Shown here: one piece after another, positions 5,840 through 12,671 of the stretch | Layout of the letters: each line of letters opens with the position of its first letter | How positions within the stretch are numbered: position 1 is the stretch's first letter | Assembly: GCA_017617395.1 (NCBI GenBank) | Contig: JAFZWG010000023.1 | Location: forward strand, 1 to 32,646 | Length of the DNA stretch: 32,646 bases | Reading direction: 5' to 3' | Source of the DNA: Lachnospiraceae bacterium | Lineage (GTDB): Bacteria > Bacillota > Clostridia > Lachnospirales > Lachnospiraceae | Made by a program: the position numbers and the translations under genes | The notes under the pieces: generated by a model | Told to the model about the DNA's origin: nothing | What the model saw: only the letters and a program-made list of their open reading frames with translations | Database searches by the model: none

Positions 5840-7294
5840 TTAAACGTTGATAGTCGCGGTCAAACCAAGGCTCTCCTTGTTCGCCTCCAGAATCGGAGCG
5901 ACAACGTTCGCCAAGAACGCCTCGGTCTGCTCTGCGGAGCGGCCTACGTAGTTGGCCGGAACCATGTAGCTCTCGAGCTCTTCTCTCGTCACGTCGAAGA
6001 CGTCGTCCGCCGCAATCAGGTCGAGAAGGTTGTTCTCGAGGCCCTTCTGCTTTACGGTCACGCCGGCTTCCATCGAGAGCTTGCGGATCTCCTCGTGGAG
6101 TTCCTGACGGTTGCCGCCCTGCTTCACGGCATCCATCATGATGTTCTCGGTCGCCATGAACGGAAGCTCGCTGCGGAGGTGCTTCTCGATGACTTTCTCA
6201 TTGACCACAAGGCCGTCCGCCACGTTGAGGCAGAGGTCGAGGATACCGTCGATCGCAAGGAAGCCCTCGGAGATCGCAACACGCTTGTTCGCGGAGTCGT
6301 CGAGCGTGCGCTCAAACCACTGCGTTGCGGAGGTGATGGCCGGATTGAGCGCGTCGATGATCACGTAGCGGGACAGCGACGCGATACGCTCGGAGCGCAT
6401 CGGATTGCGCTTGTAAGCCATGGCCGAAGAACCGATCTGGTTCTTCTCAAACGGCTCCTCCACTTCCTTTAAGTGCTGCAGAAGTCGAATATCGTTGCTC
6501 ATCTTGTGCGCCGAAGCGGCGATGCCGGCAACCACGTTCATCACGCGCGTGTCAACCTTGCGCGAGTAGGTCTGGCCGGACACCGGATAGCAACCCTCGA
6601 AGCCCATCTTCGCCGCGATCATCGGATCGAGCGCATCGAGCTTCTCCTTATCGTTGTTAAAGAGCTCCTTGAACGACGCCTGCGTACCGGTCGTTCCCTT
6701 GCAGCCCAGCAGACGAAGCGTCGAGATCACATAGTCAACGTCCGCAAGGTCCATGCAGAACTCCTGAAGCCACAGCGTCGCACGCTTGCCGACCGTGGTC
6801 GGCTGCGCCGGCTGAAAATGCGTAAACGCCAGCGTCGGAAGGCTCTTATACTTATCGGCGAACTTCGCGAGCTTGTCGATCACGTTGATGAGCTTGCCGC
6901 GCACCAGATTGAGGGCGTCGCGCATCACGATGATGTCGGTGTTGTCACCCACGTAGCAGCTCGTCGCACCGAGGTGAATGATGCCTGCCGCCTTCGGGCA
7001 TTTTAAGCCGTATGCGTACACGTGGCTCATAACATCATGGCGCACCAGCTTCTCGCGCTCCTTCGCCACCGCGTAGTCGATGTCGTCGACATGCGCCTTC
7101 ATCTCGTCGATCATCTCCTGCGTGATGACCGGCTTGCCGTCCTGCGAAAGCCCTAATTCCATCTCGGTCTCCGCCAGCGCGATCCAGAGTTTTCTCCATG
7201 TGGAAAACTTCTTGTCCTGGCTGAAGATGTACTGCATCTCCGCGGAAGCGTAGCGCTCCGAGAAGGGGCTGGTGTAACGATTGGTGTCGCTCAT
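5840..7294 (-). CDS. purB: Adenylosuccinate lyase
   Basis: It removes fumarate from two purine intermediates: SAICAR to AICAR, and adenylosuccinate to AMP. The 484 residues fit the family. The fumarase/aspartase superfamily signature GSSAMAYKRNP lies at 288-298; conserved regions HDV (86-88), TSCYVGDN (111-118) and THFQPAQ (158-164) are intact. The ATG at 7294 has AAGGAG 7 nt upstream, and the frame upstream of it lacks family similarity. Both PurB substrates are products of the fused PurA-PurC enzyme encoded just upstream, so gene order reflects substrate flow. The 145-nt gap to that gene holds three hairpins. Confidence 0.97.
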   Translation of the reverse strand: MSDTNRYTSPFSERYASAEMQYIFSQDKKFSTWRKLWIALAETEMELGLSQDGKPVITQEMIDEMKAHVDDIDYAVAKEREKLVRHDVMSHVYAYGLKCPKAAGIIHLGATSCYVGDNTDIIVMRDALNLVRGKLINVIDKLAKFADKYKSLPTLAFTHFQPAQPTTVGKRATLWLQEFCMDLADVDYVISTLRLLGCKGTTGTQASFKELFNNDKEKLDALDPMIAAKMGFEGCYPVSGQTYSRKVDTRVMNVVAGIAASAHKMSNDIRLLQHLKEVEEPFEKNQIGSSAMAYKRNPMRSERIASLSRYVIIDALNPAITSATQWFERTLDDSANKRVAISEGFLAIDGILDLCLNVADGLVVNEKVIEKHLRSELPFMATENIMMDAVKQGGNRQELHEEIRKLSMEAGVTVKQKGLENNLLDLIAADDVFDVTREELESYMVPANYVGRSAEQTEAFLANVVAPILEANKESLGLTATINV

Positions 7295-7323: not shown

Positions 7324-7430
7324 GGGGCAGCGTCGCGCCCCAAAGAAGAAACAGCGAATGAGGACTCCGCAAGCAGAACCCTCATTCCGTGCGGAAAATG
7401 CATTTGCCAAAAGCAAGGCTGCATTTTCCG
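7324..7430. repeat. Three successive stem-loops in the purC-purB gap
   Basis: Three inverted repeats lie between the fusion stop and purB: CGGAAAATGCA (7392-7402) with TGCATTTTCCG (7420-7430), a perfect 11-bp stem; GAATGAGG (7356-7363) with CCTCATTC (7380-7387), 8 bp; and GGGGC (7324-7328) with GCCCC (7337-7341), 5 bp. None is followed by a U-run on the minus strand, so they are not ordinary terminators. They may protect or process the transcript, or tune purB translation (inference). The first stem is built from two copies of the dispersed CGGAAAAT motif. Confidence 0.6.
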
Positions 7431-7439
7431 AAATATTCA

Positions 7440-9605
7440 TCAGATCAATTTCTTGCCGGTCAGCTTCTCGTAACCCTCAAGGTAGATGGCGATGGTCTTG
7501 TCGACAACCTCCTGCGGAAGCGTCCAGTCATCGTGCGGGTTCGCCTTGAGCCAGTCGCGTGCGAACTGCTTGTCGTACGAAGGCTCAGCGTGGCCAACCT
7601 CGTACTCAGCGAGCGGCCAGAAGCGGGACGAATCGGGCGTCAGCATCTCGTCGCCGACAACGATCTCGCCGTTCTCGTCGAGACCGAACTCGAACTTCGT
7701 GTCCGCAATGATGATGCCCTTCGTCAGAGCGTAATCGGCGCACTTCTTGTAGATTGCGATCGTGTAGTCGCGAAGCTTCGTCGCGTACTCCAGACCCTTG
7801 CCCGGGAAGCGCTTCTCGAGATACTCGATCGACTGCTCGAAGGAGATGTTCTCGTCGTGGTCGCCGATCTCGGCCTTCGTCGAAGGCGTGTAGATGGGCT
7901 CGGGCAACTTCTGCGACTCCTGCAGACCCTCGGGAAGCTTGATGCCGCATACGGTGCCGTTCTCCTGGTAACTCTTCCAGCCGGAACCGGTGATGTAGCC
8001 GCGAACGATGCACTCCACAGGGAGCATCTCAAGCTTCTTCACGAGCATGCTGTTACCGTTGAAGCGGTCCTGACGGAAGTACTCGGGCATGTCGTTCACG
8101 TCAACCGAGATCATGTGGTTCTTCACGACATCCTTCGTAAAATCAAACCAGAATTTGGACATCTGCGTCAGCACGGTGCCCTTCTTCGTAACCGTGTTGT
8201 TGAGGATGACATCGAAGCAGCTGATGCGATCGGTCGCAACCAGGATCATGTTCTCACCGATGTCATAAATCTCACGAACCTTGCCTTCCTTAACGGGACG
8301 ATACTCTTTCACAGCCGTAGCTCCTTTCGGTTCTCTCTCAATGTAAGCGTCACGCTCCGGTCCGACCGAAACGTAGCGGATGTGGCATCCGATCTCCTTC
8401 TCGATGTACTCAACGTACTTCTGTGCGTTGACCGGAAGGTCCTCCCAGCGACGAACGCCGCTGATGTCGCACTGCCAGCCGTCCATGTACGTGATGACGG
8501 GCTTGCAGGCAGCAAGCGCAGCCGGGAACGGAAAATCATCAATAATCTCGCCGTTCAGCTCGTAGTGCGCGCAGATCGGAATCTGCTTCATATAGCTCAT
8601 AACGTCCATCTTCGTAAGCGCGATGGCCGTTGCACCCTGGCACTCCACACCGTAGCGCGTCGCCACGATATCGATCGGTCCGACTCTTCTCGGACGGCCG
8701 GTCTTCGCACCATACTCGCCGCCGGCCTCACGAAGCTTGTCTGCCTCCTCGCCGAACCACTCGCACACGAACGGGCCTTCGCCGACGCACGTCGAGTACG
8801 CCTTCACAACGCCGACCACATCGTCGATCTTCGCGGACGGAAGTCCCGAGCCGACCGGCGCGTACGCCGCAATCGCATTCGAGGACGTCGTGTACGGATA
8901 GATGCCGTAGTCGAGGTCGCGCAGCGAACCGAGCTGAGCCTCGAAGAGGATGCTCTTGCCCGCCTTCGACGCCTGCTTCAGGACCTTGCCCGTATCGCAG
9001 ATGAACGGACGGAAGATCTCGCCGTACTTCGTAAACCATGCCTTCAACGATTCGTAGCTGACCGGCTCCGCACCGTACACGCCCGTGAGCGTCAGGTTCT
9101 TCCACGTCAGCAAATCCTTGATATGCTCGTCAAGCTTCTCCGGGTAGAACAACTCACCCGCGAGAATCGTCTTCTTTTGATATTTATCCGAATAGAAAGG
9201 CGCGATGCCCTGCTTCGTCGAGCCGTACTTCTTGTCCGCCAGTCTCGCCTCCTCGAGCCCGTCAAGCTGACGGTGCCACGGCAAAACCAGCGAGGCACGC
9301 TCACTGATCTTCAGGTTCTCGGGCCCGATCGGCACGCCCTGCCCGATCACGGTCTGCATTTCCTCATACAGATTCTCCAGATCGAGAGCCACGCCGTTTC
9401 CGAGGATATTCACAACACCCTTGCGGAAAATTCCCGACGGCAGCAGATGAAGTGCAAACTTGCCGTACTCATTTACCACCGTATGTCCGGCGTTGCCGCC
9501 GCCCTGATAGCGTACGACAAAGTCAAACCGCTCGGTCAGAAGGTCGACCATACGACCCTTGCCCTCATCGCCCCAGTTGATACCAACAATCGCGCAATTA
9601 CTCAT
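7440..9605 (-). CDS. Fused adenylosuccinate synthetase - SAICAR synthetase (PurA-PurC)
   Basis: One uninterrupted frame of 721 residues encodes two purine enzymes. Residues 1 to about 431 are PurA (IMP + Asp + GTP to adenylosuccinate): WGDEGKG with catalytic D13, GGGNAGHT with H41, [20 protein letters not shown] and TGRPRR. Residues 432-721 are a full-length PurC (CAIR + Asp + ATP to SAICAR), beginning [17 protein letters not shown] and carrying [13 protein letters not shown] and DTKFEFG. Both halves add aspartate, and both products go to PurB, the next gene. No stop codon separates the halves. At the junction AAAGGAG (8321-8327) lies 8 nt before GTG 8312, so separate PurC could also be made. 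The ATG at 9605 has AAAGG 10 nt upstream. Both domains look complete and active; sequencing error would need a lost stop codon, not a frameshift. Confidence 0.95.
8310..8327 (-). promoter_or_regulatory. purC: Internal ribosome binding site and GTG codon at the purA/purC junction
   Basis: On the minus strand AAAGGAG (8321-8327), then 8 nt, then GTG (8312-8310) open the PurC part in the same frame as PurA. The residues after GTG match the usual start of free-standing PurC ([15 protein letters not shown]). It is either a relic of a separate purC or an active internal start giving PurC in addition to the fusion. Confidence 0.7.
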
Positions 9606-9657
9606 AAAGACACAACCTTTCTTTGGTTGATTAGGTTGAAATAAAAACCCACGGTAT

Positions 9658-10332: not shown

Positions 10333-10809
10333 ATGCAACGGAAAATTCACAACCAATCCGGCCGTCTTCCGGCCCGCGTCCGCTTCCGCGGAACGATTGC
10401 TCTGGCGGCTCTTCTGCTGCTTCAGATGACCGGCATCAGCCTGGCCAATCCGGTGCGAACGACAACGGAGGTAGACTTCATCTGGATGTTCTACATGGAC
10501 CTGTTGCCGGTCGCCGGCATCCTGCTTTTGGCATGGATAGTGCTGCTGTTCCGCAAGAATGAATACTTCACCATGCAGGACCGTATCGGCATTCTGGTCA
10601 TGATTCTCGCCGGCGCAGCGCTCTGCGGACTCCTGGTCGGTGTCATCTTCCTGGTTATCGCCCTGATCCGGCTGATCAAAATCGCCACCGGCAAGCCGCC
10701 GGCCAACATCGCCAAGGACCAGGCATTTGCCAAGCACACCGAAAAGCGCAACAAGAACAGCGATTTCATCGCCCAGCTTGAGAAGATGCAGGAAGCTGAG
10801 AAGAATTGA
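10333..10809 (+). CDS. Small membrane protein with signal-like N-terminus, 158 aa
   Basis: The protein has a basic N-terminus and a hydrophobic segment (IALAALLLLQMTGISLANP) like a signal peptide or first helix, then two helices (about WMFYMDLLPVAGILLLAWIV and GILVMILAGAALCGLLVGVI) and a charged cytoplasmic tail ending in KMQEAEKN. It partners the preceding 127-aa gene. Its ribosome binding site is weak (GGGGATGGGA region), so translation may depend on coupling. The AT-rich ATPase-methyltransferase gene starts 38 nt beyond its stop. Function unknown. Confidence 0.65.
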   Translation: MQRKIHNQSGRLPARVRFRGTIALAALLLLQMTGISLANPVRTTTEVDFIWMFYMDLLPVAGILLLAWIVLLFRKNEYFTMQDRIGILVMILAGAALCGLLVGVIFLVIALIRLIKIATGKPPANIAKDQAFAKHTEKRNKNSDFIAQLEKMQEAEKN

Positions 10810-10847
10810 TCATGAATCAATCTTTGGCTACGCAAAAGGAGTCAACA

Positions 10848-12671
10848 TTGAAAATCAAAGTAACCGATTTTTTATCCATAAAGTATGCAGAATTCGAAAT
10901 CCAAAAAGGAATCAGTGTTATAGCAGGCAAAAATGGGAGTGGAAAATCCCAGTTGCTTCTGGGAATTGCTCAAAAAATATCAAAATCGAATCTGGCCGAG
11001 GAGATGGGGTTCTCTAGGCGGATTGTTGATATAGACGTACCTCAAATCGAAATCGAGGAAATGCCAAAGCTCGTACTTTATAGACCTCCTATCAGAGAGC
11101 TCTGCGAGAATGACAAGTCTGTCGAATATGGCTTTTGCAGACCCCTAAACCAGTTCATCAACAGTAATGATTTGGCAGGATATACCAATCAAATTCAAAA
11201 CAGAGCCAAAAACATCTATTCTATAATCTCTAATTTTGCCATTTCGGCGACCAATGAAAAAGCCGATGAAGCGATGAAAGAAAGATGGCGCATACTTACC
11301 GACACTTTCAACAAAGTGTTTGGCAAGGAATTGCTATACGATATCAATATTTTCAATGGCATAAAAGTTGGTGTTCAAGTTGATTCTAACACTATTTCCT
11401 CCTTCAACACACTAAGCACAGGCGAGCTAGAGTTAATCGCACTAATGTGCGACCTACTGTTGGAGTATAACATTGTAAATCCAGAGGATGGTAGTGGAAA
11501 AGAAATCAATAAAATGACACAAAAAACAATAGATAAAGCAGATATGATTTTAATCGATGAACTCGATTCACACTTTCATCCAGACCTTCAACGCCGCATA
11601 CTCGGATGTATCAAAGATTTGTGTCAAGATAAATATGTGATTATCACTACTCACTCACCTTCTGTTATGCTTTCTGTATCTCCAGATAGATTATTCTATC
11701 TGCAAAAACACCAAGACAGTTTTTCGTCAAAAGGAACTTCGTGTCGAAATCAAATCACAAAGATATCCGAAGACTATACACTGTTTCAAAAGATTAGTGA
11801 ACTCTACAGCGGCTTTTCCACGGACACAAGATATGCTGAACTCTTGAAGAATTCAGAATCTTATGAGTTGATAAAATTCGCAGCAGAATGCATGAGAAAT
11901 CCCGAAGTATTTGAGGGAGAAAAAGGCAAAGAACAAGGCTCGCAAGAATTCGCCATACAAAACTTCATTCTTTCATTTGAGAATCCCGTAATTGTTGAAA
12001 TAGGCTGTGGTCTCGGAAGAACGCTGGCTGCGTTTAATTCCTTTGACCCCGATTATTTAAAAACAATCTCATATTACGGGGTAGATATAGAGCAGGATAA
12101 TGTAAACGGGATTCTAGAATATGCCGAGGAAAATCACATTTCATGTAAATTCAAGGATTTTAACGCTGGATTAAGTTTTGATAAAAAAGCTGATGTTTGC
12201 ATTTTTGCAAATGTTATCCACGAAATACCTCGCAAAGACTTAGCAAACGAACTGACGAAGTATCTAAATTACCTAAACCCCGGAGGAAAGGCTATGATTC
12301 TGGAATGTCTGGAACTTCCGGTTGGCGAGAAAGACTATGTTGTATTAAACTTTGATGCCCTGAAATTACTGCTTGATAGAAGTATTAATAAAGGTGCCTT
12401 GAGTATGCACCAATCTACTCCTAAAACTTATTCGGGAATCCCCTTGATGCACGTTGTTATTACCGTCCATTCCCCCGAAGACGTGGAAATACGTAACGAA
12501 GACGTAAGAGCCGCATTAGAATATACAGTAAAAAATGAATCTCGAAAACTGTATCAACACTTTTCGGAGAAAGAACTGCTCAAAAGCAAATCTTTTGCCC
12601 ATGTAACCCACAATTTGGCGCATGCACAGATGGCACTTTGCTATTTCCCTAACAATCCAGAACAGTTATAA
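10848..12671 (+). CDS. ATPase-methyltransferase fusion protein (AAA/ABC-type ATPase + class I SAM methyltransferase)
   Basis: A 607-residue two-domain protein. Residues 1 to about 310 are an SMC/OLD/AAA_15-like ATPase: Walker A GKNGSGKS (27-34), ABC signature LSTGE (189-193), Walker B ILIDELD (234-240) and a switch His at 269 in TTHSP. After a linker, residues about 375-560 are a class I methyltransferase: VEIGCGLGR (383-391), YYGVDIE, ADVCIFANVIHE and LNPGGKAMILEC. The motif IV region is not (N/D)PPY, so it is unlikely to be an amino-methylating DNA enzyme. No TOPRIM or other nuclease motif is seen. TTG 10848 is preferred, with AAAAGGAG ending 6 nt upstream; ATG 10812 lacks a site. The gene is clearly AT-richer than both flanks, uses AT-ending codons and lacks the dispersed CGGAAAAT motif, suggesting recent transfer. 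A defence or stress role is inferred. Confidence 0.85.
   Translation: MKIKVTDFLSIKYAEFEIQKGISVIAGKNGSGKSQLLLGIAQKISKSNLAEEMGFSRRIVDIDVPQIEIEEMPKLVLYRPPIRELCENDKSVEYGFCRPLNQFINSNDLAGYTNQIQNRAKNIYSIISNFAISATNEKADEAMKERWRILTDTFNKVFGKELLYDINIFNGIKVGVQVDSNTISSFNTLSTGELELIALMCDLLLEYNIVNPEDGSGKEINKMTQKTIDKADMILIDELDSHFHPDLQRRILGCIKDLCQDKYVIITTHSPSVMLSVSPDRLFYLQKHQDSFSSKGTSCRNQITKISEDYTLFQKISELYSGFSTDTRYAELLKNSESYELIKFAAECMRNPEVFEGEKGKEQGSQEFAIQNFILSFENPVIVEIGCGLGRTLAAFNSFDPDYLKTISYYGVDIEQDNVNGILEYAEENHISCKFKDFNAGLSFDKKADVCIFANVIHEIPRKDLANELTKYLNYLNPGGKAMILECLELPVGEKDYVVLNFDALKLLLDRSINKGALSMHQSTPKTYSGIPLMHVVITVHSPEDVEIRNEDVRAALEYTVKNESRKLYQHFSEKELLKSKSFAHVTHNLAHAQMALCYFPNNPEQL

What the first reader, a model, noticed from the sequence alone, without database searches (positions are those of the whole stretch)
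7440..9605. In-frame fusion of PurA and PurC in one 721-codon gene
Adenylosuccinate synthetase (residues 1-431) and SAICAR synthetase (432-721) are both complete and joined without a stop or linker. The families are normally separate, and I know of no established PurA-PurC fusion. Each half consumes aspartate and makes a substrate for PurB, so the fusion could coordinate aspartate use or pass both products to PurB.
Basis: partly seen in the sequence, partly recalled or inferred. Interest (0 to 1): 0.85.

Follow-up and report, generated by a model that had tools for sequence, protein, structure and literature searches.

The report
Fused PurA-PurC gene with internal start
In a group of uncultured gut bacteria, two enzymes that make purines have been joined into one gene, and the second enzyme's old ribosome-binding site and start codon survive inside it, so the gene probably makes both the joined protein and the second enzyme alone.

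Summary
The fusion is real. On the minus strand (9605 to 7440) one 721-codon frame holds a full-length PurA (PF00709) and PurC (PF01259), the only PurA and PurC found in the window's genome (85% complete). In the genus, 10 of 22 genomes carry the uninterrupted frame, 1 more reads through the junction to its contig end, and 6 have the two genes adjacent but separated by a stop. Both halves are under strong purifying selection, so this is no assembly error. PurA of the ten forms one clade: one origin.

The 'linker' is purC's old translation start: AAAGGAG, 8 nt, GTG, where unfused relatives have an AGGAG-type site and ATG. All ten keep it (G008 as AAGGGAG), with the best Shine-Dalgarno pairing of all in-frame internal starts in each, while linker residues vary.

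Best explanation: one gene, two products, an 81-kDa PurA-PurC and a 33-kDa free PurC, in an operon with purB. Delivery to PurB is unsupported, and selection for the fusion itself is not shown. No PurA-PurC fusion turned up outside this genus in the samples searched, nor in the paper searches. Nothing was tested at protein level.

The parts
7440..9605 (-). purA::purC fused reading frame, 721 codons plus stop, about 81 kDa
8334..9605 (-). PurA (adenylosuccinate synthetase) part, codons 1-424
   Evidence: PF00709 residues 5-422; homologous end point of PurA in unfused relatives
8313..8333 (-). junction, codons 425-431 (EPKGATA); 21 nt in 10 of 10 fused species
   Evidence: six unfused relatives have 40, 41, 42, 87, 91 and 110 nt between codon 424 and the purC start codon
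8321..8327 (-). retained Shine-Dalgarno sequence AAAGGAG of purC, read in frame as part of PKGA
8310..8312 (-). retained purC start codon, GTG (codon 432, read as Val in the fusion); ATG in unfused relatives
7440..8312 (-). PurC (SAICAR synthetase) part; would be a free 290-aa, 33-kDa protein if started at the internal GTG
   Evidence: PF01259, NF010568
5840..7294 (-). purB (adenylosuccinate lyase), 484 aa from the ATG at 7294, 145 nt downstream, same strand

Best explanation
A deletion in the purA-purC intergenic region of an ancestral purA-purC-purB operon removed the purA stop codon and left the two genes in one frame, while purC's own ribosome-binding site and start codon (now GTG) stayed. 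Ribosomes that start at purA make an 81-kDa PurA-PurC enzyme; ribosomes that bind the internal AAAGGAG start at GTG 8312 and make free 33-kDa PurC. So every PurA carries a PurC and the cell has extra PurC. purB, next in the operon, acts on the products of both halves. Shown: the open frame, its conservation, the single origin of the fused purA allele, the conserved internal start signals, the gene order. Inferred: the deletion, actual use of the internal start, activity of both halves, any co-assembly of fusion and free PurC.
For: Open frame in 10 of 22 genus genomes; that search found no other PurA or PurC in these ten, apart from PurA-like partial hits of E 5e-9 to 3e-8 in three. Median dN/dS 0.049 (PurA, 45 pairs), 0.036 (PurC, 45 pairs), 0.51 (codons 425-436, 42 pairs). 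PurA from ten fused genomes is one clade at 100/100, PurC one clade at 76/82. All 6 unfused relatives with both genes adjacent show a stop, an AGGAG-type site and ATG at the homologous place. GTG432 in 10 of 10, AAA427 in 9 of 10, GGA428 in 10 of 10, while residues 430 and 431 take 4 and 5 identities. Codon 432 ranks first in SD pairing among the 22-39 in-frame start codons (codon 9 on) in 10 of 10 species, and first of 15 columns that are start-capable in all ten. With the protein kept and synonymous codons of 426-432 redrawn, a start plus pairing of -7.0 or better has chance 0.052 per species, and at most 4 of 10 species had it in 2000 draws. RNA around the start is weakly folded (percentile 0.01-0.31).
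Against: No protein or ribosome-profiling data. The ten species are related, so per-species chances are not independent. A general sliding-window test of synonymous constraint ranks the junction high but never first: best junction window 39th of 676 (5 codons), 15th of 713 (7), 10th of 712 (9), 7th of 711 (11), 18th of 709 (13). SD-like stretches without a start also occur: codon 432's upstream window ranks 15th of 712 by pairing alone. G008 has AAGGGAG, one base off. The anti-SD was assumed; an exact 14-base 16S end was found in 0 of 22 assemblies. GTG is usually a weaker start than ATG (recalled).
Confidence: 0.7

Rival explanations
1. The gene makes only the PurA-PurC fusion; the internal start is a relic that is no longer used.
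For: The frame is open in all ten full-length fused genes. GTG stands where unfused relatives have ATG, which could mark weakening. SD-like stretches occur elsewhere in the gene.
Against: A relic should have drifted: median dS is 0.70-0.78, only 3 of 45 invariant Val columns are GTG in all ten and only 2 of 63 invariant Gly columns are GGA in all ten, yet GTG and an SD with pairing of -7.9 or better persist in 10 of 10.
Confidence: 0.17
2. The internal SD-like sequence slows elongating ribosomes between two folding domains rather than starting translation.
For: It lies between the two domains.
Against: A pause site does not need a start codon 8 nt downstream, yet GTG and the following AAA are invariant in the ten; the site is homologous to the purC start of unfused relatives.
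Confidence: 0.07
3. The fusion was selected as a device for aspartate use or for channelling succinyl products to PurB. This can hold together with the two-product reading.
For: Both halves use aspartate and make PurB substrates (established pathway knowledge); purB is the next gene; junction length is 21 nt in 10 of 10 fused species against six lengths in six unfused ones.
Against: Gene order predates the fusion. Absence of stops is compatible with neutrality (P 0.50 or 0.24). SAICAR and adenylosuccinate are made at distant points of the pathway. If free PurC is made, part of the PurC is not tethered.
Confidence: 0.15
4. Assembly or sequencing error.
For: The genomes are drafts in many contigs; raw reads were not available here.
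Against: Ten different species with about 0.7-0.8 synonymous changes per site share the junction.
Confidence: 0.01

Closest known systems
PAICS (PurC-PurE type fusion of vertebrates)
   Same: A bifunctional purine-pathway enzyme that contains SAICAR synthetase (PMC10912719, passages seen).
   Different: The partner there is the carboxylase that feeds PurC directly; here it is PurA, several steps later, fused to PurC's N-terminus.
PurN-PurH1 fusion of Halobacteria and PurH itself
   Same: In-frame fusions of purine enzymes in prokaryotes (PMC3261824, passages seen).
   Different: Different enzymes; no retained internal start was mentioned in the passages seen.
LysIME-EF1 endolysin of an Enterococcus faecalis phage
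   Same: One gene, two in-frame products, through an internal AAGGAGA site and start codon in the linker region, present in 36 related endolysins (PMC7098653, abstract and passages seen).
   Different: There the short product is a binding domain that joins the full-length chain in a tetramer; here it would be a whole enzyme, and the internal start is the former start of a separate gene.
Cas11 made from cas8 or cas10
   Same: An internal in-frame start gives a separate small subunit (PMC11899642, abstract and passages seen).
   Different: Non-metabolic; in the passages seen the small product is not described as a formerly separate gene of close relatives.
Aspartokinase alpha/beta (lysC) of Bacillus and Corynebacterium
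   Same: Recalled only: a metabolic enzyme gene with an in-frame internal start. The listing showed no paper on it by title.
   Different: Recalled: the short product is a regulatory part, not a second enzyme.

Membership tests
Adenylosuccinate synthetase (PurA) | Full-length family match above curated cut-off | tested here: met
   PF00709 1-416/416, 534.8 bits vs 27; TIGR00184 420.9 vs 395.55, NF002223 484 vs 402
Adenylosuccinate synthetase (PurA) | P-loop WGDEGKG with Asp13/Lys16 and His41 (residue roles recalled) | tested here: met
   D13, K16, H41 present; this stretch aligns without gaps to 3hid
Adenylosuccinate synthetase (PurA) | Enzyme activity | not testable with these tools
   no assay
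SAICAR synthetase (PurC) | Family match above curated cut-off | tested here: met
   PF01259 2-221/233, 251.6 bits vs 20; NF010568 405.6 vs 251, TIGR00081 238.5 vs 189.9; solved relative 1obg E 4.4e-87
SAICAR synthetase (PurC) | Enzyme activity with a fused N-terminus | not testable with these tools
Bifunctional purine enzyme fusion | Two complete domains in one conserved frame | tested here: met
Genes with internal in-frame translation start | In-frame start codon with SD at proper spacing, conserved in relatives | tested here: met
   window: AAAGGAG, 8 nt, GTG; 10 of 10 species with GTG and pairing of -7.9 or better
Genes with internal in-frame translation start | Short product observed and lost when the start is changed | not testable with these tools
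   needs protein work

The most novel reading that the evidence does not exclude
A natural gene fusion caught keeping both states at once: the joined PurA-PurC enzyme and free PurC come from one frame and assemble together, with PurA dimers carrying tethered PurC that pairs with free PurC, so that internal initiation sets the PurC:PurA ratio. This would be a route by which enzyme fusions become established without losing control of dose.
Probability: 0.3. Interest if true: 0.7.

Novelty: new variant of a known kind. Interest (0 to 1): 0.5.

Why it matters
Fusions of biosynthetic enzymes are common, but I know of few cases (recalled) where the intermediate state, with the downstream gene's ribosome-binding site still in place inside the fused frame, can be seen beside the unfused state in close relatives. 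Here one genus holds both, so one can test whether retained internal initiation is what makes a fusion tolerable. It also warns that annotating the longest frame alone would miss a likely second product of a purine-pathway gene.

Tried and rejected
Channelling to PurB: no support beyond gene order, which predates the fusion. Selection on the fusion from absence of stops: not significant (HKY model with assumed kappa 3); the comparison of junction lengths is suggestive only and was not turned into a test. Reverse-order or other PurA fusions: of 137 loci with a PurA N-terminus, the frames that run more than 63 codons beyond PurA's matched end are 22 loci, all of fused genomes (several loci repeat one genome), and none runs more than 110 codons upstream; the 63-codon case, L022 of G012, is a PurA that breaks off in its match and was not examined further. 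Phage records: 162 match, 0 cover 80% of the query in one place. Riboswitch: no Rfam match in the window at gathering threshold. A first rpoB tree took wrong-strand frames for G014 and G020; it was discarded and redone. A first protein alignment misplaced 10 PurC-only rows; a second left those out along with ten PurA rows; no result here rests on either. The PF01259 class search (391 genomes) lists only its best matches; among those listed none lies in a frame over 343 codons, so it is partial evidence. Paper searches were used for precedents and gave listings only, except the papers named.

Full report
OBSERVATION. The 721-codon frame is on the minus strand, 9605 to 7440. Its product matches PF00709 from residue 5 to 422 (the whole model) and PF01259 from 438 to 688, and purA and purC equivalog models of NCBIfam above their cut-offs. 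The window's genome (2.34 Mb, 97 contigs, 85% complete) has one PurA and one PurC match, both here.

HOW WIDESPREAD. In the genus search (22 genomes): 10 have the frame open from end to end (G000, G002, G003, G005, G007, G008, G009, G010, G014, G019). G013 reads through the junction until its contig ends. Six have purA and purC adjacent with a stop between them (G001, G004, G012, G016, G018, G021). Four have a PurA about 50% identical, on another contig than any purC match (G006, G011, G015, G017). G020 has only a PurA-like partial hit of E 5e-9 (82% complete, 380 contigs). In the 61 nearest genomes and in the family sample (397 genomes, E limit 1e-190) every match that spans both halves without a stop was from the genus; the family sample held two genus members. 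In a phylum sample (398 genomes, E limit 1e-100) only the window's genome did; that list is ordered by E-value and cut at about 1e-106.

ANATOMY OF THE JUNCTION. The six unfused relatives end PurA 0 to 2 codons after the shared codon 424 and have 40-110 nt between codon 424 and the purC start, with an AGGAG-type site and ATG AAA GAG TA. The fused genes have, after codon 424, GAA CCG AAAGGAG CTACGGCT GTG AAA GAG TA in the window, and 21 nt before the GTG in all ten. So the linker is the old ribosome-binding site, and Val432 is the old start codon. The window's SD is at 8327-8321, the GTG at 8312-8310, spacing 8 nt.

IS THE INTERNAL START KEPT BY SELECTION? Across the ten, CCG426 is 10/10, AAA427 9/10 (G008 has AAG, giving AAGGGAG), GGA428 10/10, GTG432 10/10, AAA433 10/10, although in these genes AAA is 15% of Lys codons, GGA 15% of Gly and GTG 31% of Val. 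Residues 430 and 431 vary freely. Shares of same-residue invariant columns at least as conserved for that codon: Lys 0.064 and 0.021, Gly 0.032, Val 0.067, Pro 0.30, Glu 0.47; the product of these is post hoc and is not used as a probability. Pairing with the anti-SD is -7.9 kcal/mol or better in all ten, the best among the in-frame start codons of each; the other columns that are start-capable in all ten reach at most -6.74 on average. With the protein kept and synonymous codons redrawn, a start codon plus pairing of -7.0 arises with chance 0.052 per species and in at most 4 of 10 species in 2000 draws. Weaker results, told equally: windows of synonymous constraint put the junction 39th of 676, 15th of 713, 10th of 712, 7th of 711 and 18th of 709 for 5, 7, 9, 11 and 13 codons, behind the gene's beginning among others; and by SD pairing alone, without a start, the site is 15th of 712. 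The 16S 3' end was not found by an exact pattern in any of the 22 assemblies, so the standard anti-SD is assumed. The purC sites of 4 unfused relatives pair at -8.2 to -8.8, the ten fused internal sites at -7.9 to -8.4: slightly weaker. RNA folding around the start is weaker than the gene's median in all ten.

ORIGIN. PurA of the ten fused genomes is one clade (100/100) against five unfused and three outside rows. PurC agrees with weaker support (76/82). On rpoB (20 of 22 genomes had it), all fused genomes but G008 lie in one clade (100/100), which also holds G020; G008 sits with unfused G016 and G018 (100/100). G008's purB and rpoB resemble G016/G018 (up to 0.95 and 0.94), while two of six stretches of its purA resemble the fused group clearly more. 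I infer that the fused allele entered G008's lineage by recombination. This PurA type is 74-80% identical to PurA of Oscillospiraceae and other Clostridia-labelled records and 66-77% to that of 13 other genomes of the family sample, but about 50% to the PurA of most family members seen, which suggests an earlier transfer. In 8 of 8 outside loci checked such a purA is followed by purB. In our genus purA-purC-purB is the order in 8 fused and 6 unfused loci checked and in the window.

FUNCTION. Purifying selection is strong on both halves (dN/dS 0.049 and 0.036) and loose over codons 425-436 (0.51). PF01808, the transformylase part of PurH, has a match in 22 of 22 genomes of the genus, some fragmentary, consistent with a working de novo pathway. 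PurA makes adenylosuccinate and PurC makes SAICAR; PurB cleaves both (established knowledge). The most likely working is dual expression: the fusion from the purA start, free PurC from the GTG. Extra PurC fits a pathway in which all de novo purine passes PurC but only the AMP branch needs PurA (inference). Whether the tether itself helps is open: simulated neutral evolution leaves all ten junctions free of stops with probability 0.50 (SD bases held fixed) or 0.24 (none fixed).

PRIOR WORK. Full-text searches of the held open-access library showed no PurA-PurC fusion; most subscription papers are not in it, one search listed 15 of 46 papers, and I read passages of only two of the papers listed. 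Purine-enzyme fusions in those passages are PAICS and PurH (PMC10912719), PurN-PurH1, PurE-PurE' and a radical-SAM-PurC protein (PMC3261824). An internal in-frame start with a conserved SD at a domain linker is established in LysIME-EF1 (PMC7098653, passages), and internal starts for Cas11 (PMC11899642, passages).

VERDICT. A true, conserved, single-origin fusion, apparently undescribed, with a second and more telling feature: a preserved internal start. A new variant of a known kind; moderate interest.

Noticed in passing
window 10806-12671 (+): A 621-aa frame joins an AAA-type ATPase domain (PF13304; best PADLOC hits PtuA-like) to a class I methyltransferase domain (PF08242 and others) in one protein; possibly a defence-related or modifying gene.
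   Followed up: partly
L186 (G008): Mosaic operon: rpoB and purB like unfused G016/G018, parts of purA like the fused group, suggesting that the fused allele moved by recombination.
   Followed up: partly
L116, L123, L124 (G020, G005, G014; also G010): Frames of 438-489 codons with a PurA-like N-terminal P-loop region (about 40-45% identity over 60-80 residues), a divergent PurA-like paralogue of unknown role.
   Followed up: partly
L037-L112, purA loci: This PurA type is shared with Oscillospiraceae and some genera of the window's family but stands where other family members have a PurA only about 50% identical, so purA itself seems to have been transferred.
   Followed up: partly
L044, L050: In these two outside loci a different, short PurC lies just upstream of purA-purB (purC-purA-purB), another order than here.
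   Followed up: no
genus genomes, PF01808 matches: Most matches to the PurH transformylase domain lie in frames of about 400 codons, shorter than the usual bifunctional PurH as I recall it; the cyclohydrolase part was not looked for.
   Followed up: no
window 7389-9644 (+): A 751-codon antisense frame covers the whole fused gene; no family search was made on it, and it is probably a by-product of codon bias.
   Followed up: no
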